Made by a program: the position numbers and the translations under genes. From Bugula neritina (lineage: Eukaryota > Bryozoa > Gymnolaemata > Cheilostomatida > Bugulidae): a DNA stretch of 64,000 bases. The notes under the pieces are model-generated. The model made no database searches and had not been told where the DNA came from. It saw only the letters and a program-made list of their open reading frames with translations. The stretch spans positions 2,408,628 through 2,472,627 of the forward strand of contig OZ037771.1 in the NCBI GenBank assembly GCA_964035545.1, given 5' to 3'. Positions 1-48,121 of this stretch are shown piece by piece (positions within the stretch are counted from its first letter, which is position 1; every line of letters starts with the position of its first letter).

Positions 1-206
1 TTACAAGTTTTTTTTAAAAACTAAGAGCAGTACATATAAATATTCCCAAAACAAAGCAAAGTTAAGGGTTTCAAAATGCAAAATTCTTTTATTTCTGGTA
101 TTGAGGGCATCAAAATGTAACTTTAAGCCTTTTCTTTGCCCCATCCTTTACAAATGTAGTCAGTAAAAGACGCACTAGTAAGTAGAAAATGTAAATCCTA
201 CTTTAC

Positions 207-4153: not shown

Positions 4154-7100
4154 GTGAAGAGTACGACATGATTTTAGAGAACTATAGATCTGAGGCTAGA
4201 TTCGAAGTATCACAGTCTACGAAGGCCATCGTTGATGCTAAACACCAGTAAGTTTTGGTAGAGTATTTCTTTTGTAAACCATTATTACTTGTTGAAGAGG
4301 AGAAAACTTTAAACAAGTAACGAAATGCAGTAAACAAGAAAATTATGCTAATTATTGTAACTGGTCAGTGATTGTTATATGTTCCGACAAGTAAATCATT
4401 GGAATCTGTTTTGATTATAGTGCTAATATAATGTTATTCTAATACACACTCCACTCTCTATATTTGTGAGAACATGTGATGACAAGTGTTTTCAAATGAG
4501 CTAAGGACTTTGTCTTTCACCTTGCTGGCAGCATGGGTTAAAAAGCATTCAAAGTAAAACAGGAAAATTATGACAGCAATTCCATTACTTCGAATTATAC
4601 GAATGGGTGCAGTAGCAGTTTGCATGAACTTATGGATGTGGTTTCATTTGATGCAACTGTTCTCAAACATGAATGAAAATTCATTCTCGTAATTCCAAGC
4701 TTGAAAACAGCTTTGAAGCCTAGTGTATGACCGGATGCCTTTCTTTGCATCCCTAAGGACCTTGCTGAGATTTGACCTCATGACATAGCATACTAGGCTA
4801 GATCTCTAGCCACTAGACCACGTGACTGTTTCCTGTTATGTCACTATATTATTATTATTTCTCTGTTATTCAGAGCCATGGAAGTCCTGGATCTGCTGTT
4901 CAACTTCCGGTTCAACACGAGACTGGAGCAGTTTGTGTACGAGTTCAAGAATATCCACCACCAAGCTATGCAGGCTACTTCCGACATGCCAGAAATAGGT
5001 ATGCAAAGCTGTAAAATGTTGAAAATAGGTATTCTGAGCTGTAAGAGTATGTCAAAAGTATGGAGCACTTTCATTTACTTGAACTAAACTAAATTTGCTA
5101 ACATTGATTACATATAATATGTAGTGAATTGTGAATTTATGATAGAAATAGGTGAGAGATACTGTGCACTGTAAACACTAAACATAGATAAGTGGTACTA
5201 AGTTTTGCCAGGTATTAGCATGCACTCGTCTGGTGCTGTTAAATATCTAGTATGTTGTACAGGGCACCTGCTGTAAATATCTAGTATGTTGTACAGGGCA
5301 CCTGCTGTAAATATCTAGTATGTTGTACAGGGCACCTGCTGTAAATATCTAGTATGTTGTACAGGGCACCTGCTGTAAATATCTAGTATGTTGTACAGGG
5401 CACCTGCTGTAAATATCTAGTATGTTGAACAGGGCATCTGCTGTAAATATCTAGTATGTTGTACAGGGCACCTGCTGTAAATATCTAGTATGTTGTACAG
5501 GGCACCTGCTGTAAATATCTAGTATGTTGTACAGGGCACCTGCTGTAAATATCTAGTATGTTGTACAGGGCACCTGCTGTAAATATCTAGTATGTTGTAC
5601 AGGGCATCTGCTGTACGAGACCTTCGAGATTGAAGAGAAGCCACACGTCTGCAAAGTCGCCATTCGAAAGTTAGAAGAGATTTTTCACAAAACTGACTAT
5701 CTAAGAGGAAACTTTGACCTGGTGGCCATCCTCATGGTATTGTATATAGATTACCTTGACTTTATGTCTTAATCAAATCTCCCTTGTTTATTGATTTTCT
5801 CATGGAGCATTATTTTAGCAGAGGGGAGACAATTCTACACTAATGTGCAGCTATTCAGTAAAATACCATGGCTTAGTTTGTACTTTGTGAGGTGATGGAA
5901 TCAATATTTTCCTGTAAATTTGATGGGTACACAGTAAATGTTGTGATTATTTGTCAGTTGTTTTATGCATCTTTGTTTAATTTAGTCAATTTTTAAATCA
6001 TTGAGTAGTTTTTAAATATTATTTTGTTAAATACGAATTTTTTATTTGCCGTAATGTGAATTATCAATAACTATAGAAACTAGAATTTTTTTCAAAACTC
6101 GTAAAACTGGTATGACAATTTCATTGTTTTCTACATCAATCTCTTTTAGTAAAGCAATGCTGATAGTTCAAATGCAAAGTTGTCTCTTCTGCTAATAATT
6201 TTTCCATGACAATCTACTTGATGGTAAGTTACTAATATTTATTTAATTTTAGGATTTATCTGACTACAAGTACGACAAGCTGCTCATCAAGGCAATGGCA
6301 CTGCTCAACAGGTTCTATTCAGCTAATGATTCCCTCTTCAGTCGCGCAGTACAAGCGCAGGTGCTCATAACTCCTAAATCTGTGCAAGTCTACAAACGCG
6401 TGCAGGCTATCCTTCCCAAACTACAGGTTAGAATTGGTTTTTGTTTACTTCTTCATAATTTGAAGTCTGAGGTTAAAAAACATTTCCGAATAATGTTGTA
6501 ATTTTAAGATGTAATTAGATCTCTTTAATTTCTACCACCATTAAGCAAGCGACAGCGAAAACACAATAACAGGGAGTAGATAAAGCATCATGGTAAAAGT
6601 GTCATGTGACCATGTGCACAAAATGCAGACAACTCTTTAGATTTAAAACTATAATATTACAAATAATTGAATACCTACTTTTACCACTACAACTTTGATA
6701 TTCTCCTTTATATAGAGACTAAGCAAGTCAAAGCTGAGTAACGAAGCAGGAATGGAGCTTGCTCAAATCATTGATCAGCTGACTCTCTTCTGCCATCTTG
6801 AAAATGAGCCAGAGGAACCTCATCCCATGAACCAGAAGATTCTATACAATTTCAGTGAGTTGGTTTGATTTAACAACATTACTGATATTTTTGAATAATA
6901 TGTTTAACCGCAATTTGTAAATGCAATGTAATGATATTTTCTAGAAGTGTCTGTATTTATAACCGCTAGTTTAGACAATGAAGGCACAATGTAAAGAGCT
7001 AAAAAAATTTTATTGTATTTACCAAATGGTTATATTTTAAAAGTAGAATGTATTCAAAATTAAAAAAGGTAAGTGGATTTTATGCTGCTCAAATCTGTAA

Positions 7101-10100
7101 TTGATGTGTAATTGCAAATTTCTCCAATGTTTGAATTTTTATTTTCCAGACCTGCTTTCGGACATATTTGACATATTAGCAAAAGAATATGACGTGAAGC
7201 TGGCCGACCAGTACAAGGGAATGAAGTGTGCTCTGCAAGCCAGCTTTCGTTTTCTGAAGGGCATCTCCAGGGGAAATGATGCTGTACAGATCCGGCTGTT
7301 TGATCAGCTGGACTTTATGCTGCGGGTGAAGGGAGCTGAACCTGAGATGGCTGAGGCAGTTCTTGAGGTTAGTAGTTGATAGTGTGTGAGAGATTGAGTG
7401 AGTGAGTGAGTGAGTGAGTGAGTGAGTGAGTGAGTGAGTGAGTGAGTGAGTGGGTGAGTGAGTGAGTGAGTGAGTTAGTGAGTGAGTGAGTGAGTGAGTG
7501 AGTGAGTGAGTGTGTGAGTGAGTGAGTGAGTGAGTGTGTGAGTGAGTGAGTGAGTGAGTGAGTGAGTGTGTGAGTGAGTGAGTCAGTGAGGGAGTGGTGT
7601 CAGTGAGTGAGTGAGTGAGTGAGTGTGTGTGTGAGTGAGTGAGTGAGTTAGTGAGTGAGTGAGTGAGTGAGTGAGTGTGTGGGTAATTGAGTGAGTGAGT
7701 GAGTGAGTGAGTGAGTGAGTGAGTGAGTGAGTGAGTGAGTGAGTGAGTGAGTGAGTGAGTGAGTGAGTGAGCGAGCGAGCGAGTGAGTGAGCGAGTGAGC
7801 GAGCGAGCGAGCGAGCGAGTGAGTGAGCGAGTGAGTGAGGGGTATATTTATTATTTGTACCAGAGTATGTGATTGAGTAAGTCATTTAGTTAATAGTAGA
7901 TTGTGATGAGTTTAATCCAGTATAAAATATTGTTAGTTATTGTTTATATATACATATATGTATACATAAACACGCACACGCACGCACACACACAATGTGT
8001 AATAATATTGCAATAATAGTTATGTTTTGCATAATGTATTTTTATTTTATAGATATTCACAGGAAACAAAGTAACTTGTATGAAGGTTTTAGCCTATCAA
8101 ATTCAAAGGATTATGTTACTGGCGGCAGAACACAGAGCGGAAGCGCCTCAGTTTCTAGACTTGCTCAATGCTATCGTGAAGGTGGAGGAGCTCAACCTGC
8201 CCCTTAAAAGGAATCAAGGTTAGCGTGAAGTTTTTAGTATATTCCAGCACACAACATAGTCTCTTTTCCAAAGCAGCAATGTCAGTGGCTAAATGCGTCA
8301 AGTAGTCCAGCTATTACTTTGCGCTATCTACTCGTACCCATAACCATATCTGGAAATAGACTAAGTTTTTAAATTAAAGGTTAGTTGTAATGTCTATTAA
8401 TTGAATACATTGACTTGTTTTAGGCTACGTGATGAAGTATTTCATGCAGTACCGTTCAGAAGTTTCTGGCTCTTTGGAGTATGACCAGCCCTCTAGGATG
8501 GAACTCCTCAAAAGTAACTCCAACATCAAAGAGCTTAGATATATGCTGTCTATGGTAGATCTACTATCTACTTGCGCAGAGGTAAGCAACTTGTTTGGTA
8601 TCCTAGTGACTGCTTGAGAAATTTCAAATATTGCCAGGGATAACTATGAAAAATTTACTAGTGGATATAGTTACTAAGTAGGAAAGCTGTGCAGCATGAT
8701 TAATAACATATGGCTTTACTATTTCAGGGGGAGAACAGATTTATTGAGTCTATATGTCAGACTATCTTCAATCTGGACGAATTGTTAGAGATTTTGACAG
8801 ACGAAAACCTTTCTAATGCCGTAAAGAAACCATTTCTGCGGTACATGCTCTGGGTCTATATGAACACTGCTGGAGGGATCATTGAGAGTGGGGCTGGAGA
8901 CCTCCCTCATGACACGTAAGATATGATGTAACTTCTCCCTCGTGACACGTAAGATATGGTGTAACTACTCCCTCATGACACGTAAGATATGGTGTAACTA
9001 CTCCCTCATGACACGTAAGATATGGTGTAACTCCTCCCTCATGACACGTAAGGTATGATGTAACTCTACTCCCTCATGACACGTAAGATATGATGTAACT
9101 ACTCCCTCATGACACGTAAGATATGATGTAACTACTCCCTCATGACACGTAAGATATGATGTAAGTTTACTCCCTCATGACACGTAAGATATGATGTAAC
9201 TACTCCCTCATGACACGTAAGATATGGTGTAACTACTCCCTCATGACACGTAAGATATGATGTAACTACTCCCTCATGACACGTAAGATATGATGTAACT
9301 ACTCCCTCATGACACGTAAGATATGATGTAACTACTCCCTCATGACACGTAAGATATGATGTAACTGTGCGTATGAGTTGTTAACACAACTCCTTAGTTA
9401 TTCACCCATGAGCTAAACCAGGTCAACTAATGGGGTAGCTTAGTAGTCAGCCTGTTTTATAAATGCTTTATTATTTGATTTATAGGATTTGCCCTCTTGT
9501 GTATTTCAGCATTGCTATCAGTAAATAACATAATGTGTGTGATATCTTTACCTTCAACAGTAAAGCATTTATAATAATGCACAATGTTGATGTCAGTAAT
9601 AATAATATTTGCTATGAATTTTTTAAACTAAACCAAACAAATATACAACTGTTATTTGCTTCTGCTATTTGGAGTTATTCCCCACTTCTTGTACTCGTAG
9701 AAACATGTGGAAGTTCATCAAGATGGTAATCAGTGATCTGGATAAACTGATCAGCTTTGTTCGAGATAACCAGGACACCACAAAGCAGTTGCTGAAAGAA
9801 GCGCCCAATATAGCTGCGTATGTATTATTATATAATATATATGTGTATGTATTGTTATATAATATATATGTGTATGTATTGTTATATAATATAGCTGTGT
9901 ATGTATTATTATATAATATATCTGTGTATGTATTATTATATATCTGTGTATGTGTTGTTATACACATCTGGTTTGTTTCCCATGTTACTTAAAAGATTTT
10001 TACCATGAATTAATGCAGCATTGGTCAATTGTTCGTCCCATTATCAATTATATTTACCTTCATTGCAGTTTTTGATCACACTAGTACATTATATTATTTC

Positions 10101-13100
10101 AAAAGAAATTTACTGATTTCAATTTGTCATATATATATATATATAAATATAATTGTGTTTGGAGTGACACTGTGTTCATTATAAAAAAATTGTTTTAATA
10201 AATTATTGAAACTACCCTTTTCTATACACGTAGTATTATGCATGGACGATTTCAAGACATGCTGCCAGTGGCAGCTGGGTAAATATATCTCGTTTGAATA
10301 CGTAGTGACAGTGTAGTGTAAACTAGTGTGATGTATTATTTTGTTTGCAAGATTTTTCAGTTCTCTTTCTTCTAAATTTAAACTCATTTGTTGTGAGCTG
10401 CTTGTTTTTATTTGTTGACCTTTGACCTGTATGACTATTTATAATTTTCTAAATGGAAAATTGCTATAAAATTGTAGCTACGTTGTCAATAAAAAATTTC
10501 AATTAATTTAATTTAGTTTGATTTAATTTGCCCCAATATAATTATTTGGAGTTTTATGTACGCTGAAGCTGCTAGTGTAGCGGACTCCAGTTAGATTTAT
10601 CTTCTCTTGTTACATGGGTTCAATTTAAATGTGATCCTCTTGCTCTAGTGTTTTTCTAATTTCATTCTCACTTCTGCAATCATGTGACAAGTTGCTGAGT
10701 TTTCTGTTACTCACTGCTAAGCTGGTGTAAGTTTTAGCAGCACACGCTCATAAAACTGGGAATTTCCCTATTTTTCTTAGCCCAAGGTTTTTACGAGCAC
10801 TACTGATTGTTACCTGTTTACCGTTTTAGTGAGTCCAAAATTGCCCAGAAGTTGAAAGCAGCGGCTAATAAAGCCAAACTGGTTTCTGATATCACAGAGA
10901 GCAGTGTTCCTTCTATAGAGATCACTCCCAGGTAGTATAAGTTTCGTAGATTACTTTAGTTTTTATTGATTATTTTGTTTCACATTTTGATTGTTTTTGA
11001 AAAGCTCGTCTGTGTACTCAAATGCTTGAAATTAACAGGGAAAGAAGCAGCTTGCTATTTATTATACAATTTCAAAACCTGCTAAGTTTTTGAAATTTAA
11101 TTTATTCTAACCTCTGGGTGCCCTTAGCTCAGTCACTGGTTGGTCACTACCTAAGTTATAGTCAAAAGGATTAAAGTGGTAGCAAAAATTCTGATTTTTC
11201 ACATTTTTTATTTAAAAAAGCAAATTTGGAAATTTTGCAAAAAGCTATCTAATTATCACAACAATAGTATAAGTAAATTATAGCCAGTAGTTTGGAGGAC
11301 TCTTATTTAGCCTCTGTTACACGTTTTATTCAATCAGATATAATTTTTATTAATATGCATCATACTAAGCTGATAGCACAAGCTCTATTGTGTGATTCAC
11401 TGTTTATCACATTGAGCTATGCTTGTAGTTTCATAGTGGAGTTAACTAAAGCCTGCAAGCCGATCCTTTTACTGGTAGCTGCATTAAACTTAATCTAAGT
11501 TTTCTCTTAACTTTTGGCATTTAATTAGAATTCTGCGTATTTTTAGCTTTTAGTGTCTTCAATGTTTGTAGCTAAATATTTGCAGCATGGGCCAAGTAGT
11601 TGTGTTTATTTCAATCAAATTAAATTTTTGCTAGATGCCGAAACTCAGCTGCCCACTAACTGGACACCCTAACTTGAGCTATTAGCCTCAGTTTCTATAC
11701 TTTTAGAGTAGAAAGCAACCTTTTTAGATCGTTTTTATCACCTGCATTTATATGCTAAAATCAAATAACCCAATAACTGAGTATTGATGTTTTAAAATAG
11801 CTTTGCCATATAAAGCATGACATCCAAAATATTTTTAGCCAAAGTTTTACTAGTTGTTCTTGCAGTTTTACTAGACTCAAAGTCTTAGCTTGTAGTTTTA
11901 GCATGCATAATTGTAACTTTATTTCTTTCATATGCCGAGTTTAGTTTTACCTGCAATAGCTAAATACTCTGCTACTGTAACTCATCCAGTACCAGCTACT
12001 GCTGCTTAGAGTTGCTATGACAACAGGAGCACACCTAGGGCTATTCAGAGATTATAGGTCATCATCAGCTCTGCTCTCACCTGACAGTTTCAAATACTAA
12101 ATTCCAGGCCATTTTTATAACAAATATTAACTGCATACACTACCTAAATTACCTACATGTATGTTTATAACAAATATTAACAACATACACCACCTAAATT
12201 ACCTACATGGGTCATTCCGCGTCAAATCAACCAAATTTCAGAAAGTCCCACGCCTTTGCGTCTCAGATTTTGTTCATATTTACACCAAATGGACCTACAC
12301 ATGTCTTGAGTACTATTCTTGAATATTTCTGGCCTGACACAAAAACTTTTTGAGAAATGACTATTTCCATGAACAGAGGTTGGGAAAAATTTTGAGGAAA
12401 ATTTGCGATTTTTACTTTTAGACCAATTTGTAAACGTCCATATCTCCATTATTTTTCTAGACTGAGCCTTAAAATTTGGTGTGTGATTTGATAACACCTA
12501 TCAATTTGCACTAGTAATAACACATACTGCAGAATACTTTGTGTGCATATATGCTACGCCATTGAATATTGGCAAATTTTTGTGAATTTTGAATAAATTT
12601 GAATATTTGCCACATCACAAAGGGCGTTAATTTTTATTTTACTCCCATGAATTTTTATCCATGAATAGTTGATTATGGTGACTTTATACTCCTTAATTTG
12701 TGTAATTTTGAAAATAATATTTTCCGAGATATAGACACCCAAAGTGAAGAAAATGTGAAAATTTGCCCAACTTCACAAGGATGTAACCTGATGTTTGAAT
12801 ACAGTAATATCTTTCAAACAAGCATTTTCTGTAACGTCATTTAGTGTATTTTGTAGATTCATAAATTTAAACGTCCTTATATTGTCCAAACTTAAAATAA
12901 ATTGCATGGAAAAATGGTATGTGTACGAAAATCGGCAAAATGCAATTTTTCAATATAATATGTTGGGATCATACAATTTTTATTATTCACATTGTTCAAA
13001 ATATTAAGTAGATACATATATGTCTCCTATATATGTCAAATCTACTGAAGATTATAATAAAATCTGATTTGTGTGTAATAGCGTAAGAAAAATTCTGCCG

Positions 13101-16100
13101 ATATGCATTATATGATATTCCCATTAAGTTTCAGGTAGCAATTGTTATTTCTGTGAGTGAATGGTGTGAAACAGCTGAAATTTTGCTGGAATCAAGTACA
13201 TTAAGTAGCTGAGGCAAGGAAGGCTTCAAAAAGCATACCCAAATATAACACCAGGGTCCTGAATACAATAGGCCGAATTAGGTCAACGAGGGGGTTAATG
13301 CATGCTGAAAACAATTGTGGCTTTTGAAACAGACCTGTCTAAATATAGCAGAATGGTCCTAACCTCACCCTGATCAGGTTAGTAATTTGCCCAGGCTAAG
13401 AATAATATTCATCATCCTGAAAAAATCTACAACTTTTTCTTTTGAATGTGGAGAGAATGATTTTCCAACTTTACCATCTAGTTCAAACAGAATTTCCTTT
13501 GCAGTTTTCTGGCTTGCTGGGCCAGGTAATTGTTTGCTCCAAATTCTATGGCTGTTCCATCGATGGTCTAGCTTTTCGTGCTAATGTCAATAACTAGACC
13601 CTCTTTAGTCACAAGAAAACTTCCGTGTCCTTATTCAAGGATCATACTAATTTGTTCAAATCTTTATGATTACTACGCTTCATACAGACATTTGTTGCTT
13701 CTGGGTGGAGTTCTTCTTCATCTATACCCAAGACTGTTTCTACCCTTTCAGTAATGACCTCCTGAACTTTCTTTTGTTTTCTTTTCCTATAGCTTACTTT
13801 ACTGGATGGGCTAATTTTGCAACTTTCAAGGGAGAAGCTTCCAATTCTGTCATTCCAGTGTTTAGTGTCTGTGCTTCCTTCTCAACTTCAAGAAATGCAT
13901 CACTTTTAGTTTCCTGAGAGTATTCTGAGAGCTCAGCTTTTTTTAAAGCAATTAATATTGCACAGTTTTTCTCAGTTTCTACAGTTCAAAAAAGTAGAAT
14001 TATACCAGGAGAGCCCCAAAAATTAGCCCTTCCAGTAAAGTGAACTATGGGGAAAAAACAGAATCAAGTGGAGGAGGTCATTGCTAAGAAGGTTGCCACA
14101 GTTGCAAGTATAGAGGGAGAGGAACTCCACCCAGAAGCAACAAATGCCTGTATAAAGCCTATTAATCAAAGATTTGAACATATTAATATGTTCCTTGAAT
14201 AAGGTGAAAGTATCTTTGGGACAAAAGAAGGTCCAGTTAGTGACATTGGCACCAGAAAGCTGGACCATTGACAAGACATCTATAGAATTTGGAGTAAACA
14301 ATTATCATTGTGTTTTAAGTTAGAGAAATAAATATTTATTATAGTAGCAGACTGAAGGAATAGCAACATAAAAAAAGGTTAACTCATGAGTTACAAGTTG
14401 CCAGTACAAGCGTGAAATGCAAGTCTGGATAAGAGAAAAACTGCTGGGTCTTTATAGTCGTAAAAAAGTTAGCTTTTGTGTATTAGCTATAATGAAAATG
14501 GAAAAGCATAATATAGCTGAGATGATATGTGAAAAGCTATCATGTATTAGGGAAAAACTTTTTCAGCTTATGTAAAAACCCAACAATTACCTTGCACAGC
14601 AAGCCAGAAGACTGCAAAAGGAATTCTGTCTGAACCAGATATCAAAGTTGGAAGACCATTGTTTCCAGTTATGAAAAAGAGAGTTGTAAATTTTTTCAGG
14701 ATGAACATTGGACATGACATGAGGCCAATTACTTAACCAGTACTGACCAAATTAGGGCGAGGTTAGGGCCATTCTGCTATATTTAGGCACATCTGTTTTA
14801 AAAGACACAATTATTTCCGGTATGTACTAAACACCACCGTCATTCAATTAATTAGGCGTATTGTGTTCAGGGCCATGGTGTTATATTTGGGCATGTTTTT
14901 TAAGCCACCCTTGCTTCAGCTACTTAGTGTACTTGATTCCAACAAAATTTCAGCTGTTTCACACCATTCACTCACAGAAATAACAATTGCTACCTGAAAC
15001 TTAATGGGAATATCATATAATGCATATCGGCAGAATTTTTCTTACGCTATTACACACAAATAAGATTTTATTGTAATCTTCAGTAGATTTGACATATATA
15101 GGAAACATATATGTATCTACTTGATATTTTGAACAAAATGAATGATAAAAAATGTATGATCTCAACATATTATATTGAAAAATTGCATTTTGCCGATTTT
15201 CGTAAACATACCATTTTTCCGTGCGATTTACTTTAAGTTTGGACAATATAAGGACATTTAAATTTATGAATCTACAAAATAAACTAAATGACGTTACAGA
15301 AAATGCTTGTTTAAAAAATATTAACATATTCAAACATCGGGTTACATCCTTGTGAAGTTGGACGAATTTTCACATTTTCTTCACTTTGGGTGTCTATATC
15401 TCGGAAAATATTATTTTCAAAATTACACAAATTAAGGAGTATAAAGTCACCATAATCAACTATTTATGGATAAAAATTTATGGAAGTAAAATAAAAATTA
15501 ACGCCTTTTGTGATGTGGCAAATATTCGAAATTTTTCAAAATTCACAAAAATTTGCCAATATTCAATGGCTTAGCATATATGCACACAAAGTATTCTGCA
15601 ATTTGTGTTACTACTAGTGCAAACTGATAGGTTTTTATCAAATCACACACCAAATTTTAAAGCTCAGTCTAAAAAAATGATTGAGATATGGACGTTTACA
15701 AATTGGTCTAAAAGTAAAAATCGCAAATTTTCCTCAAAATTTTTCCCAACCTTTGTTCATGAAAATAGTCATTTCTCAAAAAGTTTTTGTGTCAGGCCAG
15801 AAATATTTAAGAATAGTACTCAAGACATGTGTAGGTCCATTTGGTGTAAATATGAACAAAATCTGAGACGCAAAGGCGTGGGCCATCGGTTGAGTTGACG
15901 TGGAATGACCCACATGTATGTTTATAACAAATTAACCTGTAATACATTTTGTCAAACTATGATTATAAATATTTTTATACTTCATACAAGAACTTTTTAT
16001 CCGAAACATGAAAATTTGAACATGCTCTTTGGTAATTCGATTAACCGCTACACGTTAAATTCTTTTAATTAAACTTCTAAATGTTGCAAACTTTAATCGA

Positions 16101-19100
16101 ATTTACATTAACAATTCATATCAGCTCTGTTATTAACTCCCACCTCTCTGCACAAAAAATTAAAATGAACCAAATTTTCACTCTGCAATGAGCCGTCAAA
16201 CTATCTTGTTTTAGAGTAAAGCTACCACCTTTGATAACGTCTGCTGATGAGTAAGACCCTACCACTCCTTAATACCTTTCCTATTTTCCTAATAGCTGCT
16301 TGCTTTACAGCTCTTACTAACATCTGAGACACACTTCCAAAATATCTGGTACATCTCTTTAAATTTTGGAGTTATCATTTCTGAGCTTGTATTGTAAATA
16401 CTATGGAATTGAATATAAATCATAACTACATGCACTTACAGTGTAATGTTACACTCTGCCATAACAAAATGGTGGTATTTTTTTAATTAGTTTGTGCTAA
16501 AGTGATTTGCATTGGTTATGTTGTGAGTAAACATTTTTCATGCTGCAAAAGCTCTTAGGATTATATGAGGAAGAATACAAACCAACACACCTCTGAAGCT
16601 TAACTTACATCTCCAACTGAATACTGAATGTGGATTGTGTCTCAGATGTTTCTAGCACCAATTAAGCTCATATGTTTAAGCTGCTTGGTTATGGTTAGAA
16701 ATACTAACAATAAAGCTACAATATGTGAAATATATTCAACAGCTTTAAAATGATTTAGTAAAAGTTTGAAAATTTATTATGATTTTAATATAATTTTATG
16801 CCTATCATTCAAAATGCCAAATGTGCTCGTAGATACTGTATTTTAGTATTTAAATATATTATTTCGTATTATCTTCAAAAGATTGTGTAGAAGAGGTAGA
16901 AAGCTAACATAAATGTTGTGCTTACTAGCTTTGCAAAATTACCCTAGACTAACTCAGCTATAGCACGCCTGCTCACACCTGCCTCCACTTGCCTTTTAAA
17001 GTATTGTTGGCACTTCGTTATTGGTTTGATATTTAAAATAATGATAAGGATCTCAGGGTTTTGGTTGTCTGGTAAAGGGATACCTACGCTAAAAGTTGTT
17101 GTGCTGATGTAGTATACAGTTTCAGGTTGTTTGCAGGGTGACTAGCTGTATATATTTTGTAGGAAAACTCTAAATCGTGCCAAAATTTATTGATTAATGT
17201 AGCAATTGGCTTTTTGATTGCTATAATAATATGTTAATTGGGATTGATACATTACTATATTAATTTGTGCATTGATTGATTGACATATTGTGTGATTAAT
17301 TATTGACTGATGCATTGCTCTTGAGATGGCGTTATCAGGAGGTAGTGGTGTCCACATTTATTCTCTTATATTTGTATTAAAAAATATTTGCCTGTAGTGA
17401 AGCAGGCTTTGAAAGTTCTTATTGCCTATTTTAAATCTGATGTAGTTACAATTGGTTTTAACTAATTATGGTCATATCCCTAAATTTTATCAAGTTTCTA
17501 AATCCTGTTGAACACCTTAAATAAACCTATCCTACATTAGAAGGAAGAAAACTCAAATTTGAGAAAAAGTTTTAATATAAAAGACTAAACTTTTATATAA
17601 TAATAATATATAGAAGTAACAAGTAACTGCATGGAGTACATAACTCTTGTTGTGTTCCAGTGAGCCAGTCAACATACATGACATGCACGGTTCTCTCCAC
17701 TACTACTTTGACGCTGTCATGCCCAGTCTCCAGGTACAGTCTAGACATGCTGTCTTCCAGTGCAATAGTTTCCATTCTGTGCTGTAAACATAGCATGATA
17801 TAAAATTGTCTTCATTCGTTCAAGCGCCAATTTTTTCAATTCGTGAGTTTTAATAGTAATAATTCAAGGTTCCAGTTGCTCAACTTTTTAGTTATTCAGT
17901 GTTCTTCAGTTTTCGTTGAATTATGTTAGAGAAATTAATAGAAATTAACTTATTGGTGCAAACCTTCAATTGTAAATCTGTTCAACTTTAATGGTACATG
18001 AAAAAAGCATCTTCTACTGATTTCTCACACCTGAGTTGTCACAATAATTTTTTTATTTCCCAAAACTTTCTTTCTCGTAGGTTTTCTTCAGATCTTACTA
18101 CCAACCGAATTCTGATGAATTTCCTGACGAAGCTGGCACGGTAGATCAACTTGCTAATAAGTTTATGGTAAGATGTACTTTTAATATGTACAGATAGGAG
18201 TTATCTCCCAGTTAATGTCAATAGTGTGTATGTAGTACTCATGCACACTGAGTGTAATTATACCAAACTGATGCCTCTGTAGTATTGGCCACAATGAAAT
18301 CTTTCAGCAACAATATTTTTACTTCAATTAATCATTATTTCATAACACTCTGTAAATATGAAATGTTAATATTCAAAAGTTTTCAAGTTTTTTTCAGCAA
18401 GTTTAATATGGTTTTTTAACAGACTGTCTAAACTGAATCAGGATAGCCTTTTGGTTTTCTAACTTTCCAACTAATCAATCTCAAATCAGCTCCATCGCTA
18501 TGTTTTTAACTTTTCTTCCTATAAATTTACTTTAAGCCAATGTTTAGCAAACATGTTTAACAATACATACTGGCAGTGGTATCTTTGATGTAAGAGGCAT
18601 AACATAAGCTCACGTGAAAAGCAAAGTCAAATTAATAAAACATTTGTGTGGTGTAACCTTCTATGTCGGTATGTGTGTTTTTACAGAAATTTGTTGATCA
18701 TGTGGGCGGGATCATCTCCGATGATCTTCAACTAAAAACGATGGTGACATGCGTAAGCTCCATCTTGTCATCCTCTAACGTTTCAGTCAAGGTAACTCTT
18801 TTCAAACTTTATGCTTTAAATCTTTTTCAAATAATATTAACTCTAGAGTAAGCCAATTTCTGAGCTCATTGCAAACACAGTTTAAATGACACTCTTGCAT
18901 ATCTAAGTAAAGTAGGCGAGAGTAAAGTGACGGAGAAATTGGGAAAAGCCCGTGTTCTGTATGACAAAAATATCACAAAAGCAGTTATGTTTTCGTGAGA
19001 TTTTCAACCTGTACCTTGAACCAAATTTCAAAAAGGAGTTGGAAAGCGTAATATATTAAAATTTCTTTGTGACTGCATCTACAACTTTCACTTCTTGGGA

Positions 19101-22100
19101 ATGACCTGTAATGTATATGTGATGCATGGCTGTTGCTTTATTGAGAAGGAAGAGAACCAATCACATACGATGCAGGTGACGGGTCAATGTCGTGTCGTGG
19201 TTTTATAAACTCTAAACTTTCTTAATAGGATGTGGTATATTTCACCTATATATTGTATCTTTCTAGTCTTTTCAAGTTTTAAAATATTGTGTACAGCATA
19301 ACTTCTTCATATTCTAAATTCCAAACTAACTTCTTGTAAGCCATGTTGGTGCCAAATAGCACATAAAAACCGTATCAAGCTGTCGCGTTAAACTGCTTTA
19401 CATATTGTAGCCTTCGATAATTAATATTTTGCTATTCTTTTCTGAATACAGAATAAGGTAAGAAATGTTTTTCAAAATAAAAAAACAGCAAAATTATGTC
19501 AATGATACATCCTTAATAAGCTATCATCAAACAGAATGACAAAAGTAAGTCCATGTGTCTATAAAGAATTATAATTAAAGTCGCTCTTTGAATTATGCTA
19601 GTAAATAATTAATAATTTAATAAATGTACAAAAAAGAATTAAAGTTAAATCTATATATTTAGTTCTAGAACTTTGCTACATATTTACTCTGTTGTTATTC
19701 TCCACATACTTCCTGTTCGCAGGTGATGGAGGAGTTCCAGGAGAAGTATGGACATTCAGGGGCCGAGGCTGTCTCCAGCGATGCCAGAAAAGTACGTCAG
19801 ATAATTTACCATAACTTGATGATTTGTCAAAAAAGTTGTAGACCAATATCAATATAGTAGATATGAAAATAATCAATAGTCAATATCAGTATAGTCAATA
19901 GTCAATATCAGTATAGTCAATAGTCAATATTGGTATAATCAATATCAGTATAGTCAATAGTCAATATCAGTATAGTCAATAGTCAATATCGGTATAGTCA
20001 ATATGAAGATAGTCAATAGTCAAAGTCCATATAGTCAATTTATTATCAGTGAATTTTTTTGTCCATTTAGAATTATGTAACAGAGTTTTCGGCGGAAGAG
20101 GAACTGAATGACCAGTTGAATGTTTTTGCCGAGAACTACGCTTATGTGTATGGAGGAAAGAATGACATCAAAAGTCAGACGGGTTTTGATAGTCATGCAG
20201 GTAATACATATTATGTAGCATTATTGATATTTTGTACAGTCATATTAGTGCATCCAGTAGACATTATTAGAGTTTACTTCAACGCTGGTACCTGTAATGT
20301 CTTGTGTAGAATACACTGAGCTGGGTGGTAACGAGGAGCTACCCTTAGGCAAGGAGTTTCAGGACCACATGGGTGCTTTTATCAAAGAGTCTGCATCAAC
20401 ACATGCTGAAAAATACTTCATGGCTAAAAAGCTGATTGACCAATTGGCGTAAGTTTGAGATTCACTTCCATTTCCATACTTTCTAAATATTGAACATTTC
20501 ACTTTTGTTTTAGGCATTTCACTTTCTAAATAACTTTTTATTTATACCATAGCGTTTCCTCGAATTTGAGATTGACCAATGAGAGAGACCGGTTATCTCA
20601 GAATGACCTTGACATAAAATGCTTTCAACTTCTGAGAGGTTTGATTCACAATGAGATCATCAAACTTCCCGCTGAGTCAGAGGAGAATGCCAGACATACG
20701 AAAAGGTACGAAACATGTACCCAGCATACACTAACATTGTTTGAATATCTCAACATCATCCGTTAATTATAATTGTAATGAGTATTTGTTCTAGCTTTAA
20801 CTTTGCCATGTAACACCCTTGATACTTTCTAATGTTTATCCTCACTCAGAGCTTAGCCTATGTTTATGTAACACTTTATGGGTGGGGTTCCTCACTTCCC
20901 ATCCTTTTTGTGTACCTTAAAAACGAGTTGAAATATTTTATATACACAAGAATTAGTTAAATTCTTCTCAGGCAAATAATACATCAGAAGCAAGTTGCTT
21001 TTATGGAAGAAAGTTATGAAGACACTTTTAGCATTTCTAATAAATCGCTTAGCCACAGATTCTGTATCAAACTCACAAGCTATAGCCTTGGATCTAGAAG
21101 TTTTTGCACTCCATCATTCCTTTTATCAGTGCCTGCAGTTATTCTGGAGTTTTTATTTTTATGAAAAGCTAGCAACGTTCTACTTATAACTTTTTAAACT
21201 GATTCTAAACTATTATAGTGGCTCCGTGCTGCCTGCCTCTAAAGTCCGACGGTAAGAAATTAGTCTGAGAATTGAACATCACAGTGATTCATGTATACAC
21301 ACAAGAAATAATTTCTCACTTAATTGAAATTCCATGTTTAGATTGCTGCTCAGTTGCAAATTTATTCACACTGATTATCCTTCAATCAGACAATAATAAT
21401 CTTTGCATCATTCTTATATTAAATTATTATTTGATGATTCTTGCTTTGGAATCCTTATATTTTAGCCCACAATTAGTTGCCAAATATTGTTATTAGTTTC
21501 CAATACCCACCTATTTGTTCCGGGTTAACAATCGCCAGTAGATGCAACTTTACCATGCCATCCGCATTATTATTTTCAAAAATTCCCTTTTCAGTTCTTA
21601 TCTAACAAAAATAGGTGCAATATTTATTATTTATTTGCTTCTTAGAATTAAAAATTATATTGTTTTATTGTTGTATTATGCTAACATTTAAACTTTTTTC
21701 ACTCATTTAAACTTTTAAATTTACATATATATTTTTTTCTTTTTTTTTTATAAAAAGCTTTAAAGTTGAGCATATTAGTGCCCATGATGACTAGTGTTCT
21801 ATTTTATATATATAGGCACTTGGGTTTTGCTGCAAAATAATGGAAGGATTCAATCTCCTCTACGAATAAAGTTTAAACCTTAACTTATTTAGAAATGCTT
21901 AATCTAAAATTCAAGATGTTCTCTAAAAGCTATTACTAAAAAAAAATTGCCACGGTTTCTCATAAATAAGCTTACAGTATGAATATAGGAAATAATAATA
22001 ATTTTACAATGAATAAAATTGAAAATTCATCACTCATTCCTATAAGTACTTTGCTTATTTGTTTACTAATGTATACAGTAATTTATTGGCATTTAGAAAA

Positions 22101-25100
22101 CAAAAAGATATTTAAAGAAACTGATGAACTCTTTGATTTCAAGTCTTTTCTGAAAGTTATGCTAAAGGCTCTGTTGGTAAAATATCTTTATATATGTATT
22201 ACTATCATCTATGGAATATGACTTTCACGTTTTATTGTTTTATTATAGACAACTTCAGCACATAGCCGACGTGCAGAAGGTTCTGGAAGACCACAATGCA
22301 ATACTCAAAGTTCTGCCTCATCTCTCTAAAAATCAAGACAAATTAATCAGAGAGATTCTGGCATTTATGGCAGCCATGTTGCATGGAGGAAACGAGCAAG
22401 TGAGTCATCCCATTCAGTTGTTACTCAATTCTTAGATGCCTATATTGTAATGGAATGTAAATTTATGGGATAAGTTGTAAACAAGAATTTTCTTACTGGT
22501 AGTTTATAAAACACATTCCGGTCCAAGCTAACCGTGGTTTTTTCAATATTATGAATTATGTTTAAACTTATAAGTTGCTATTATAATAGAAACTTGTGGC
22601 AAATGACAATTAAATTTAAAATTCAACATGAGTTTTGCAAATTATTTATTAACATAAATTTAATTTGCCAAATTAAATGTTGCAAAGAGGAGGTTGAAAA
22701 TTTCAGGTACAGAATAGTTTGGTCAACTATTTCTACGGAACTCGAGAAGAGAAATTTTTCTTTGCGGTCAAAAATCGAATAGATTTATCAACAATGGCCG
22801 TGAAAGAGCAGAGATCTCTAGCGGCGCAGTACATGGCTAAAGTGGAGGAGGCAATTGAGATGGCCAAGTCTCTGAAGAAAGCAATGGCTACAGCCAAGGC
22901 CACAGCCCTGGTATGACTTTACTATTCAATTCTGTCTGCCTCTTCAATCCTTTAATCCAATTCTGACTACCCTTTTAATCATTTTGCTTTTATAACTTCA
23001 GCGTATCGGTTGTCTAGTATTTATATCACTTCTGAAGGATATGAACAACTTAAAAGGAGCCATGTTTGGGTCAAGAATGAGCAACAGGAATTTCGGTTCT
23101 CGTATGGGAGGGTCAAGAATGCTCGGCGCCAGAACTGTGAAACCGGTCGGCTCGGCACCTAGACGCAGCCCGTCAGTCAGGGTGAGTTGAGAAGGGGTTT
23201 GTTGAGAATGTATAGTTTACCTACCTTTAATGCACTACAAGTATATTCTTGCTGTAAATTTGAATGTAGTTGTTTTTTATAACATAAATGTGGAAAATTT
23301 TAAATTTGTAGCTGCCGTAGATATTTTTTATATCACTTATAACTATTATTTTGTTACTATGACATCATTTAGATCATTTTTAATATAAAATAATTGCATA
23401 TACTTCGTATAAATAAATAGATATACTATTATATAGCAAAACTTTCAAGTGTGAAACTTATAATAGGGTTGCAATATGTTCAGTATACAAACTAAATAAA
23501 CTCATTTTTTATACTTTTGTTCTGCAAATTATTTAAAGTTTTTTTGTACAAAACTATTTGCCATCTAAATTAGTATTAAAAAGAAATAGGCGTGTTTTAC
23601 TATACTCCTTCATTTCTTGACATACTAATTGTTGATTACAGAAGAAGACCCCAAGTTACATGTCTTTACAAGGCAGCAACACAAATATGTCGGCAGCCAA
23701 TGGGCATGCTGGCTCTGCAGCACACCTGGATGTCAAGAAGAACAAAGTGGCTCCCACCGGCTCTGTCGAACTTGAAGAAATCAAGGTCAAGGACACAGCG
23801 GTTAGTGAACACTTCGCAAGTGCCGAACTTCTCATTTCCTGTGAAATAAATTTACATGTTGGTCTTGTTAAGTAAATGTGGTTGTTTTTAAATTATTTTT
23901 GGCAAAGCTTCTAACTATTATAAAAATATATGAAAACGTAATGATGGATTGTAATAGTTTTGTCTTTTGCATTAATTTATCCTTCGATTGTGTTGTTTAT
24001 GTTCAAAACCAAGTAAAGCTAAAATTAGTCAGTTTCAATGTTGTAGCACTTTTTTAAATTTCATAGCTAAGATGACAAAAACATGGTTTATATACACACT
24101 GGGCTTGTTAAAAAATTATTGTAGTAATAGATAGTGTGACAAGTATTTCACTTTTTCATTTTCTGAAGTAAGATTAACTAGATTGCTCTGTTACCAGGAG
24201 CTGGATAAGGACGAAATAGCTGAGATAGAGGCCATGGCCTCAGAGGAAATGGACATGGAATACGAAGATGATGGCTATATCGAGTTGGTGTTGAAAGTTC
24301 TCGGGCTAATGTGTGATGGACAGAACACACAACTCCAAGTTAGTTGTGAAAAATTAGATATTATTGACTAATTAGGTCATGTGACTAAAACAATGATTGA
24401 AATCAGTTTTACCCTTGAGCTGCATGTACTAGCTACCTTGTTCTGAAAAACAAATGAATATTATATTTTATTAGAGTTTAAACTTTGACAATTGTTGTGT
24501 TCCAGAATTATCTTAGAGAACAGCCTGACAACATAAAGTCATTCAACCTAGTCGGTGAGACGGTGAGATTTCTGCAGTTACTCTACAGTAACATCAACCC
24601 CAACACCATCTCTCTCGTTATTCAAGTGTTCAACACACTAGTTGAGTTCTGTTCAGTAAGTTTTTTTTTAATTACAAAACTTTTACTTAAGATTTAACTG
24701 TGGTCTCTCCCAAACTTTTTAATCTGAAAACATTCCCCAGACGCAAGATTCAAACATGTAGTCTTACCTTTAAGGACTTCAGTACAAGGATCACTATCAT
24801 GTCACACAATATCTTGCAGGGCAATGCATACAATCAGAGTGTAGCGTTTGACAATAAAATCATAGACTATGTCAACTACATTCTCCGCAACAAGCAGTAC
24901 AAAGTCTGTGACCCTGAAGACATCCTTGAACTTAAGACGGGCATACAGCAGCTGGTCAAGGCCATGTGCGAAGAGAACAGAAGTGTCAAGGACCAATCTA
25001 AGGTATCACAAACTCAGTCTATTACTTGCGCAAAGCTACTTGTAGATGCATCCTTTCTAGTCTCAGCCGAATAAATGTTCTCAAGGTTATTCCCAAACAA

Positions 25101-28100
25101 AGAGATCAGAAAAGATAAATGTATATCGATTCCGAATACAGAACTGTTTTTTTGTTCATCGATAATGTGACCGTGACCAATTCAACCATATCGTGGTGTG
25201 TAAAAGCTGCTTAAGTATTTCTTATGGACTTAGTTAGTTGGCAAATGCACCCATTCTCTTCAACAAAGCTATAAACATTCCATAGACAAATTAAATTTAA
25301 AATAATTTCAATTGTGACCTGGTTCTGAGTTATCTTCTCTTATATACACATTGTCCGTGCCCACAATAACAAATTGAGCTGCTACTGGAAAGCAGTAACT
25401 GAAATTGAATCCAAAATGATACAAAATATGAAATTATAGATGTAAATATTTTTCAGCTGAGCATGGAGGTAAGAGAAAGTTTGCTTTTAACTTTTGTATT
25501 TTAATAGCTGAGTAATGCTACGGTTTTTTATTAACATTTTGAAAAGCTGGTGCTTTTCTGTTACAGCAGTTTGTTAATACTTTTAGAAATGTTGATATCT
25601 ATGTGTAGTTTTTGTGTGCCCTTTGTACAATGTTATGCTTTACCCTTTATGACAGGGTACTACAACTCTGATTAAGGTTTGTATTGATATGGCATGTGTA
25701 TTTGATTTTGTACATTTGCTTTAAATTGTTTATTTTTTCAAATTCTTTTTAGTAATTGCAAGTTTACAATAATTGTAGTTTTGCGATTCAAAATAGTTTT
25801 ATTTTGTCTGGAAATCTTTTTCAGTATTTAGCACATAGAGTAGAAAATTTCATGATTCATTGTAATAGTTTAGTTGGAAATTTTTAATTTTTCCTAATGT
25901 TGTGTTCACTTTAAGGTGAAACAACAATCAGATGGTCTAAATTTCACAAACTTAGCAAAGTTGACCACAGTACAGGTAACAGAATGCAGCTTTTCCTTCT
26001 GACTCAGCTTCATTTATCAGTTGGAGTTGTCTCACTGATAGGTGTTGTCTGATATTTTGCTGTGACGCAGAAACAGTTAATGCATGTAGTACTAGCTGTT
26101 GAAAAGTTGTGATGTTAATATTAGATAGTCGTTTGTTGATGTGTTATTAATGCTTCTATTTTATATATTCTATTCTGCCACAGTGTTGCATTGTGCCAGT
26201 TATTTTCTAGAATCTTCTTCCTGATTACTAACTGTTGTTTGTTTGCTTCTCATAAGTTTTGATTTGAGCTGTTTTTGCATGTGACATACTGGCTGTGTTT
26301 TGTTAACACGTTTGAATCAAGACTTTGCTGTTTCACTATAGCCCAGCCGTATTGATGATTACGATACAAAAGTATGTATTGAGAGCTTAGAACACTCATG
26401 AGCTTTGCTTAGCATTAAAGTTCATGTCTAAGATTAACATTTCTCGTGTAGTTTAGAGCTCAGGGGTATTTCCTGTGTAGATAACATAGCATGCTTTTAC
26501 ATTGCGTCATTGTTCAATATAGTCGGAGCTTGGAACGCCCATCAAGGTAATAAACGGCTGCCAGCTATTGCTTAACTACTTTAAAGGTGAAAGATGCTTC
26601 ACTTACAATTTACAATACAATAATATGTCATATAATATAATACAGTATTTCGTATTATATTATATTATACATGTTACATAATATAGTGCTATTGTATCTT
26701 ATATTCTGGCTGTCTTTGCTAGAACCTCCATCTCCCTGTAGATATAAAACACTTACTAGGTAGATATTAGTGACTATTAGACTGTGGTCATAATATGCTT
26801 TAAATGGTAAACTATAGCTAACAGAAAATTTGGTTAGATCACAGTCTAAAATGTTGTTTATAACTATCTTGCTGGTATTTTATTGTCGCATAAAAAGCAT
26901 ATATCTATCTATCTATATCTCGTCTCTTTTAATAGTCTGAAGCTTTGGCTACAATTCCATATATATAATCTTTGATAACAATTTTATATATACACTTTGG
27001 TAATAATTCAAAATATCTTTAACATTTTTGCATAAAAATATTCATTTGTATGAATGAAATGCTTTGAAAGATGAAAACCTAGCTTGACAATACCCTAAAA
27101 TCATGTAAATGAATAATATTGTACTCAATTAACATCCGGTGGTGGCAGAACCTGTAATTTATACTCCGAGACGCAATAGAACATTGGCTTCATACCCGTA
27201 TCCAATCAGAGTCTGTATATTCCAACAGAGCCTCTCTTCCATTGACCCTCCCGGCTTCAAATATTCTCCTCTCAGCTATCTCAATTCTATATTTTAGAGC
27301 TAGTTGTAGCTAGAAGGCATAGTATACGTAATGATGTGTTTACTAAACTTATGCTATTTTTAGAAATACATTTTGAATGACGAATGATTTGATTAAAATA
27401 TTCCATCAATGACTTGGTATCACAGCTTATCTAATATTGGTTCTAGATTAGCACTAGTTATATTGTTGTAAAAAAGTTTGAAAATTTTTAGTAGTAATTG
27501 TTTAAATTACAAAGTTTGACCATTAAACTCAGAATTGTTTTAAATTTTTTAAAAACTGATCAAAACTAATCACTCAAGTCTCATCTTTATTAAACAAAGT
27601 GGCATAAAATGTTAAAATATTTTTGTACTATAAACCGATATTGTTAATTGTAAAACTCATAGCTATTGGCTGAGTCATAGCTATTAGGTGAGTCATAGCT
27701 ATTGGGTGAGTCATAGCTATTGGGTGAGTCATAGATATAGTAAAACTCATAGCTATTGGGTGAGTCATAGATTTTGTGCGAGTCATAGATATTGTAAAAC
27801 TCATAGCTATTGGATGATATTTCAGGAAGTGATGGACACGCTGGACATGGACAGCATACAGGAAGTAATGCTCAGTCTGTTTGATCAGCTGTGTATGTAT
27901 TCAATGGGCTCAGATGAGTACGAGGCTATCAATCAGATTGCGTTTGGCTACTACCACCTTATTAGAAGGTACCAGGATGTGGACGAGACCTTCGACATCA
28001 AAGGTAGATACAGTCACTTTCTTTTTGTCTCGTATGTGTAATAAGTAAATTCATATTCTGCTGACATGTACTAATAAGTTAAATTTTTATCCTTAGATTT

Positions 28101-41570: not shown

Positions 41571-41656
41571 CGAGCTCAGATCTCTTTACACAAGTTTGGT
41601 TACTCGATTTCAAGAGCTCATAGTAGGAACACGTGTTCGGTTATACTCTCTAGATA

Positions 41657-48121
<6,465 letters not shown>

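What the first reader, a model, noticed from the sequence alone, without database searches (positions are those of the whole stretch)
5233..12000. Minisatellites repeatedly seeded from splice junctions
Seen: separate arrays at 5233, 8898, 9811, 30349, 33889 and 63421 each have a unit that spans an exon-intron border, and unit sequences are unrelated to each other. Arrays at 7386 and 27661 are also GTGAGT-rich and adjoin exons. Two genes are involved. Inference: some process in this genome (slippage at R-loops or spliceosome-stalled sites, or selection for splice-site redundancy) amplifies DNA at splice sites. I know of no described class of this kind.
Basis: partly seen in the sequence, partly recalled or inferred. 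Interest (0 to 1): 0.9.

Follow-up and report, generated by a model that had tools for sequence, protein, structure and literature searches.

The report
Tandem repeats copied from splice junctions
In the genome of an unidentified animal, six tandem-repeat arrays in two genes have repeat units that straddle an exon-intron border; they match the 'mirages' described in amphioxus, likely grew by ordinary repeat slippage, and are likely tolerated because the original splice site would still be used.

Summary
All six named arrays (5234, 8902, 9807, 30352, 33888, 63427) straddle a splice junction: five in an IP3-receptor gene with 38 placed exons (4 donors, 1 acceptor), one at an acceptor in a dachshund-type gene. 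The arrays at 7381 and 27657 adjoin exons without spanning.

The class is not new: tandem repeats spanning exon-intron boundaries are described in amphioxus as 'mirages', with similar cases in human genes. Outside the window, arrays are in excess only at donors, mainly starting 0-20 bases inside the intron (7 of 57, 1.0 expected; 0 of 1000 placements). Strictly exon-spanning arrays (2 against 1.25) and acceptor arrays show no significant excess. The excess is absent on reversed sequence, but falls to 4 against 1.65 (P 0.066) when only exons with strong coding scores are kept.

A genome-wide GTAAGT-array count looked like a 35-fold signal but failed a composition-matched control: arrays here are rich in AGT/GTA words. 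Selection for spare donor sites gets little support. Most likely: mirage minisatellites grown by slippage or unequal exchange, tolerated because the outermost site is used, with likely faster expansion at 5' splice sites. That last point rests on a small sample and a home-made exon finder.

The parts
4154..35385 (+). IP3-receptor gene, 3' part: 38 coding exons, stop at 35385 (gene begins upstream of the first exon placed)
   Evidence: homologues
5234..5615 (+). 11.2 copies of a 34-base unit; last copy holds the acceptor of the exon starting 5603 (TTGTACAG|GGCATCTGCTGTA)
8902..9366 (+). 14 copies of a 33-base unit; first copy holds the donor after 8915 (CTCATGACAC|GTAAGATATG)
9807..9942 (+). 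5 copies of a 27-base unit; first copy holds the donor after 9817 (ATAGCTGC|GTATGTATTA)
30352..32708 (+). 93.6 copies of a 26-base unit TATCATATC|GTAAGTATTACTCACTG; first copy holds the donor after 30360; 89 exact GTAAGT copies
33888..34054 (+). 5.9 copies (75% matches) of a 28-base unit; first copy holds the donor after 33898 (GAGACAG|GTCTGTTAC)
34895..34938 (+).
63427..63734 (+). 14.7 copies of a 21-base unit TATATTGTAG|TGGTATATTAC; last copy holds the acceptor of a dachshund-domain exon starting 63731
7381..7839 (+). (AGTG)n, 13 intron bases past the donor following 7367; adjoins, does not span
27657..27817 (+). array ending 8 bases before the acceptor of the exon starting 27826; adjoins, does not span
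45334..45405 (+). 3.4 copies of a 21-base unit, 16 intron bases past the donor following 45317, in a Cys/Met-metabolism PLP-enzyme gene
19844..20039 (+). mid-intron array (59/22-base unit) with no junction contact; counter-example in the same gene

Best explanation
Six arrays in this window are minisatellites of the 'mirage' kind: a short piece of DNA at an exon-intron border is repeated head to tail into the intron, likely by slippage or unequal exchange, and is likely tolerated because the spliceosome would keep using the outermost, original splice site. Shown: the units contain exon bases, and the real donor is in the first copy (or the real acceptor in the last). Shown on a small sample with predicted exons: arrays outside the window start near donors about four times more often than random placement gives, mostly 0-20 bases inside the intron, and donor arrays have more and better-matching copies. 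Inferred: repeats at 5' splice sites expand more often or last longer than elsewhere in introns. The cause of that bias is not established.
For: Junction-spanning units on a continuous coding frame. Homologue support for three donor junctions and one acceptor. Out-of-window cases with exon-derived units: L053, 20 coding bases in a Nop14-family exon, and L045, 25 exon bases plus 11 intron bases per unit. Placement test outside the window, exons made of repeats dropped: donor zone -40..+20, 9 of 57 arrays against 2.27 (0 of 1000 placements); donor 0..20, 7 against 1.03 (0 of 1000); random loci alone 4 of 34 against 0.95, P 0.010; reversed-sequence control 1 of 56 against 1.57 (earlier versions). 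Coding-flank score independent of splice signals: 8 or more beside 6 of 12 GTAAGT and 7 of 12 TGAATG arrays against 17% of 900 random intervals. Donor arrays: median 8.6 copies against 3.75 (p 0.019), 92% against 86.5% matches (p 0.007). Amphioxus mirages have the same anatomy and are reported to leave splicing intact.
Against: Outside the window, strictly exon-spanning arrays are not in significant excess (2 against 1.25). Keeping only exons with coding score 12 or more, the donor excess is 4 against 1.65, P 0.066. No RNA data, so which splice site is used is unknown. The exon finder is home-made, trained on the IP3R gene and then on part of the same sample, and makes many false calls: 76 predictions at score 17 or more on the reversed sequence of the 27 loci against 116 on the real sequence. 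4 of 8 out-of-window predicted proteins had a Pfam match, one below its cut-off. Without the hand-picked loci the match-rate difference is p 0.058.
Confidence: 0.6

Rival explanations
1. 5' splice sites are a mutational hotspot: R-loops, bound U1 snRNP or paused polymerase at the donor would break or stall DNA there, so tandem duplications start and expand at donors.
For: Excess at donors but not acceptors, whether or not the unit holds the donor; more copies and higher identity at donors.
Against: No R-loop, germline transcription or mutation data. In the random loci plus window, 1 of 10 donor-zone arrays has under 2.6 copies against 26 of 61 others (p 0.077), which speaks, weakly, for expansion rather than initiation.
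Confidence: 0.2
2. Composition: the repeat-making process in this genome favours AGT/GTA-rich DNA, and the donor consensus GTAAGT/GTGAGT resembles it, so donors are hit by coincidence.
For: ACTACT, GTAGTA and CACTAC are about 9-12 times over-represented in 64 arrays not chosen by motif. AGTGTA triple hits (53768) outnumber GTAAGT ones (24099) genome-wide.
Against: Several donor-zone arrays start 6-18 bases past the donor and do not contain it. GTRAGT sites away from exons were not tested as a matched control.
Confidence: 0.2
3. Selection for spare splice sites: extra donor copies would be kept because they back up the real one or add U1-binding sites.
For: The IP3R array at 30352 keeps 89 exact GTAAGT copies. 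Over nine arrays, donor hexamers have 10 substitutions in 950 bases against 74 in 2199 for the rest of the intron part.
Against: That difference comes mostly from one array: without 30352 it is 5 of 389 against 28 of 1273, and the exon part is 14 of 744 (subtraction by me, no significance test). 7 of 9 donor-zone arrays outside the window start at or after the donor; unit length mod 3 is 6/5/4. Reading on past the real donor meets a stop after 1, 58, 9, 9 and 6 codons.
Confidence: 0.1
4. Chance plus ascertainment: minisatellites are dense in these introns and the reader noticed the ones that touch exons.
For: The window is a discovery locus; exon-spanning arrays outside it are 2 against 1.25, and with strict coding scores the donor excess is P 0.066.
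Against: Donor-zone excess over all predicted exons was not reached in 1000 placements and is absent on reversed sequence.
Confidence: 0.12

Closest known systems
Amphioxus 'mirages' (Adh3, globin, troponin C, PGBD5, other loci)
   Same: Minisatellite-like tandem repeats whose units span exon-intron boundaries, at 5' or 3' borders; many copies carry AG/GT splice signals; unit 10-72 bases in Adh3, 150-160 in globins (passages read).
   Different: Here the named IP3R relatives in the listing are mostly annelids, molluscs and flatworms, so probably not amphioxus; arrays of up to 94 copies; a positional bias to donors was measured; splicing and length polymorphism were not tested.
Human internal tandem repeats at exon-intron boundaries (PMC2812944)
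   Same: Units of about 30 bases, some at exon-intron boundaries, where they change introns (passages read).
   Different: Found in recent segmental duplicates, with novel introns and alternative splicing; here they lie in conserved genes such as the IP3 receptor.
[quoted passage not shown]
   Same: A minisatellite that supplies several donor sites (title seen as a reference entry only; gene name 6-16/G1P3 recalled).
   Different: A single gene in which, by the title, several donors serve; paper not held.
Dual-specific splice sites in tandem repeats such as UBC (PMC10809524)
   Same: Tandem units holding splice signals (passages read).
   Different: In UBC the repeat is coding and the intron is a multiple of the unit; here the array lies at one end of an existing intron.

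Membership tests
Mirage minisatellites | Tandem repeat whose unit spans an exon-intron boundary | tested here: met
   six arrays in the window; L038, L045, L047, L053 outside
Mirage minisatellites | Both 5' and 3' boundaries can be duplicated | tested here: met
   donors at 8915, 9817, 30360, 33898; acceptors at 5603, 63731
Mirage minisatellites | Regular mRNA splicing despite the extra splice signals | not testable with these tools
   no RNA data; only the continuous coding frame across the introns
Mirage minisatellites | Length instability between haplotypes or somatic cells | not testable with these tools
   one assembly only
Splice-site redundancy under selection | Arrays contain the donor in their units | tested here: not met
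   7 of 9 donor-zone arrays outside the window start at or after the donor; one of them, L050:195-473, starts at the donor and does carry GTAAGT in its unit
Splice-site redundancy under selection | Donor part of the copies better kept than the rest | tested here: inconclusive
   1.05% against 3.4% over nine arrays, 1.3% against 2.2% without the 30352 array
Genome-wide enrichment of donor motifs in arrays | GTAAGT commoner in arrays than composition-matched words | tested here: not met
   GTAAGT 24099 against TGAATG 682, but AGTGTA 53768; part of the latter is satellite
Positional enrichment at splice sites outside the window | Array edges nearer to donors than random placement | tested here: met
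   9 of 57 against 2.27, 0 of 1000 placements; strict coding filter 4 against 1.65, P 0.066
Positional enrichment at splice sites outside the window | The same for acceptors | tested here: not met
   3 against 2.50, P 0.45

The most novel reading that the evidence does not exclude
In this animal the 5' splice site itself is a genome-wide hotspot where minisatellites are born and expand, through a transcription- or splicing-coupled mutation process, so that a large share of genes have introns that begin with an array, and mirages are a general animal phenomenon rather than an amphioxus oddity.
Probability: 0.22. Interest if true: 0.75.

Novelty: new member of a known kind. Interest (0 to 1): 0.45.

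Why it matters
In the papers I could see, mirages are a handful of amphioxus genes. A genome where such arrays recur, with a bias to donors that can be measured, turns the question of why repeats grow at splice sites into one that annotation, RNA-seq and pedigrees could settle. It also bears on intron gain, since repeated border copies are proposed raw material for new introns, and on how a spliceosome picks the right donor next to dozens of copies.

Tried and rejected
GTAAGT as a genome-wide marker: 24099 triple hits against 682 for the reversed word, AGGTAAGT 1682 against 9. Rejected after the hexamer survey of arrays and the AGTGTA control (53768 hits). Hits count places, so long arrays count many times. 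The AGTGTA count holds some satellite: L020 has 8 AGTGTA per 103 TTTCAG triples, which scaled to the 93366 TTTCAG hits would be roughly 7000; it stays above GTAAGT, and in C1 up to 190 kb, plus strand, the lists show 10 AGTGTA loci against 5 GTAAGT loci (listings are capped). In the 15 random loci these triples are too rare to compare (0 and 1). AG- against GA-context counts (1682 and 2839) are uninformative because GTAAGT donors here have weak exon ends (AG in 2 of 13 against 47 of 127). TTTCAG triples are swamped by a 20-base satellite. GTATGT and AGTAGT did not complete.

Hairpin-prone units: 83 arrays against 150 random pieces, p 0.46. Per-part substitution rates: its indel rows are an artefact of my end-gap setting. 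The position lists printed are one base too high and are not used. My notes speak of 16-18 random loci and about 28 TGAATG loci in C1; the right numbers are 15 loci used and about 24. In one search one donor-zone case (L054:1121-1467) lay beside a predicted exon that is itself a 15-base repeat; one search drops such exons. For L010:2199-2327 the finder took the second copy's donor; with the first copy's donor the array would start at about the donor.

Pfam-located exons (PF00063) as an unbiased exon set: the genome search did not complete. Species: not identified.

On re-checking I ran, replaced the placement figures, and lowered the novel case from 0.25 to 0.22 and raised the chance rival from 0.10 to 0.12 because of the P 0.066 result.
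Full report
What is there. TRF lists 60 rows in the window. I placed 38 coding exons of an IP3-receptor gene at 4154-35385 by their splice contexts; joined, they read 1795 codons with one stop, at the end. Homology supports the gene and some joins: 52 homologous proteins among the 7998 candidates scored, named hits mostly annelids, molluscs and flatworms; Elysia IP3R reads straight across junctions 33898 and 34903; PDB IP3R2 aligns across 30360|32827. The N-terminal segment aligns to IP3R3 mainly over residues 162-419 of the query, so junctions 5603, 8915 and 9817 rest on frame and splice signals. A dachshund-domain exon starts at 63731; Pfam Ski_Sno_DHD covers 1-71 of the 73 residues that I read across that junction.

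Arrays against junctions. Four arrays straddle IP3R donors (8915, 9817, 30360, 33898), one an IP3R acceptor (5603), and one the dachshund acceptor (63731); a two-copy repeat straddles donor 34903. In the six arrays the real donor lies in the first copy or the real acceptor in the last. Exon bases inside them number 4 to 14. The 30352 array has 89 exact GTAAGT copies; reading on past the real donors of the five donor repeats meets a stop after 1, 58, 9, 9 and 6 codons, so use of a later donor would usually truncate the protein.

Is it more than chance? I built an exon finder from the IP3R gene (34 of 36 internal exons exact on its own training gene, with 5 of 42 predictions touching no exon; retrained on the random loci) and placed each array at random as a one-unit seed not lying wholly inside an exon. 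In the window, 4 of 13 arrays with at least 2.6 copies span a donor (0.30-0.37 expected, 0 of 1000) and 2 span an acceptor (0.28-0.35, P 0.025-0.046). That is the discovery locus. Outside it I used 15 of 20 evenly spaced loci of one chromosome (dropped: two all N, one mostly N, two filled by long tandem arrays) and 12 loci holding TGAATG arrays, picked by eye as clear arrays from about 46 distinct loci in the listing. First count: donor zone -40..+20, 10 of 54 arrays against 2.36, maximum 7 in 2000 placements. At exon thresholds 14, 17 and 20: donor spanning 3, 3, 2 against 1.53, 1.26, 0.93 (P 0.19, 0.12, 0.24); donor 0..20: 7, 7, 4 against 1.23, 0.97, 0.76 (0, 0, 1 per 1000); donor 21..60: 1, 0, 0 against 2.07, 1.69, 1.34; acceptor zones not in excess.

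Re-check. The finder makes many false calls (76 at score 17 or more on the reversed sequence of these 27 loci; 116 on the real sequence), and one donor-zone exon proved to be a repeat itself. With repeat-made exons dropped: donor zone 9 of 57 against 2.27 (0 of 1000), 0..20 7 against 1.03 (0 of 1000), spanning 2 against 1.25, acceptors 3 against 2.50. The same procedure on reversed sequence gives 1 of 56 against 1.57. Random loci alone give 4 of 34 against 0.95 (P 0.010), the picked loci 5 of 23 against 1.39 (P 0.010). Keeping only exons with coding score 8 or more: 7 against 2.03 (P 0.003); 12 or more: 4 against 1.65 (P 0.066). A coding-flank score that ignores splice signals is 8 or more beside 6 of 12 GTAAGT arrays (one array, L041, was mis-picked by the script) and 7 of 12 TGAATG arrays, against 17% of 900 random intervals. 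So there is a bias towards the donor and the first bases of the intron, moderate in strength; border-spanning arrays are part of it rather than a separately proven excess.

Character of donor arrays. Pooled over random, picked and window arrays, 15 donor arrays (the doubtful L054 case among them) against 46 others: more copies (median 8.6 against 3.75, p 0.019), better matches (92 against 86.5%, p 0.007), longer units (28 against 18, p 0.014); period mod 3 is 6/5/4. Without the picked loci: copies p 0.003, matches p 0.058. Arrays with under 2.6 copies are rarer at donors (1 of 10 against 26 of 61, p 0.077). This fits expansion rather than initiation being favoured at donors, but weakly.

Exon-derived units elsewhere. 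L045 carries 25 exon and 11 intron bases per unit; L053 carries 20 coding bases of a Nop14-family exon (E 9.5e-17, domain match across the junction); L047 follows an ankyrin exon (E 3.9e-17); L058 abuts a sperm-tail-domain exon (E 1.7e-10). Of the first 12 listed GTAAGT arrays, 4 sit at a predicted coding donor, 3 lie within about 20 bases of the acceptor side of a predicted minus-strand exon, and 5 have neither; of the 12 TGAATG arrays, 4 lie at a predicted donor, 2 at an acceptor, 6 at neither. The GTAAGT set was chosen by motif and is not used in the placement statistics.

A test that failed. GTAAGT repeated three times at 14-44-base spacing gives 24099 hits genome-wide against 682 for the reversed word. 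This looked decisive. But arrays not chosen by motif are rich in AGT/GTA/TAC/ACT words, and the swapped word AGTGTA gives 53768 hits, of which roughly 7000 may be a satellite (scaled). The GTAAGT signal is therefore best read as composition, which also leaves open that donors attract arrays because their consensus resembles the favoured composition.

Mechanism. Shown: border DNA is repeated into the intron with the authentic site outermost. Background (recalled): minisatellites change length by slippage, unequal exchange or gene conversion. Inferred: the arrays arose that way, splicing keeps the outermost site, and expansion is favoured near donors. Selection for spare donors gets little support. 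Units are not hairpin-prone. R-loop or spliceosome-linked damage remains possible and untested.

Known work. [quoted passage not shown] the PGBD5 paper (PMC3902484, passages) adds another case and cites troponin C. Human boundary repeats are described in PMC2812944 (passages); a human minisatellite giving multiple donors I saw as a reference entry only. In ten literature searches, limited to open-licence papers, the passages I opened use 'mirages' for lancelet genes only; two other listed papers hold the word and were not opened (PMC13078855, PMC10693001). That is not proof of absence elsewhere.

Verdict. Real, recurrent and of a known kind. What may be new is how common it is here and the measured bias to the 5' splice site, which needs an annotated genome to settle.

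Noticed in passing
window 12247-15882: A foldback structure inside an IP3R intron: inverted arms of 248 and 740 bases (97 and 94% complementary), with two shorter inverted pairs inside; looks like a transposon with long terminal inverted repeats.
   Followed up: partly
G000 C1:14695200-14704615; L020: A 20-base satellite (TTTCAGTATGTTACAGTATA) running for 9-10 kb or more at both places; possibly a major or centromeric satellite.
   Followed up: no
L016:1-8402: An array of 35.9 copies of a 234-base unit (117-base half-unit) at 98% matches, much of which scores as coding; a possible repetitive protein gene.
   Followed up: no
predicted and placed donors of the window and random loci: GTAAGT donors have AG at the exon end in 2 of 13 cases against 47 of 127 for other donors, a see-saw between the two halves of the 5' splice site (most donors are predicted).
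   Followed up: partly
G000 C1:4576468-4576686 (minus strand): Array units read CTCCCCCTAG|GTAAGT, which resembles a recursive splice site repeated every 19 bases.
   Followed up: no
window 41654-48085: Predicted exons of a Cys/Met-metabolism PLP enzyme (Pfam PF01053), cystathionine gamma-lyase-like by recall.
   Followed up: partly
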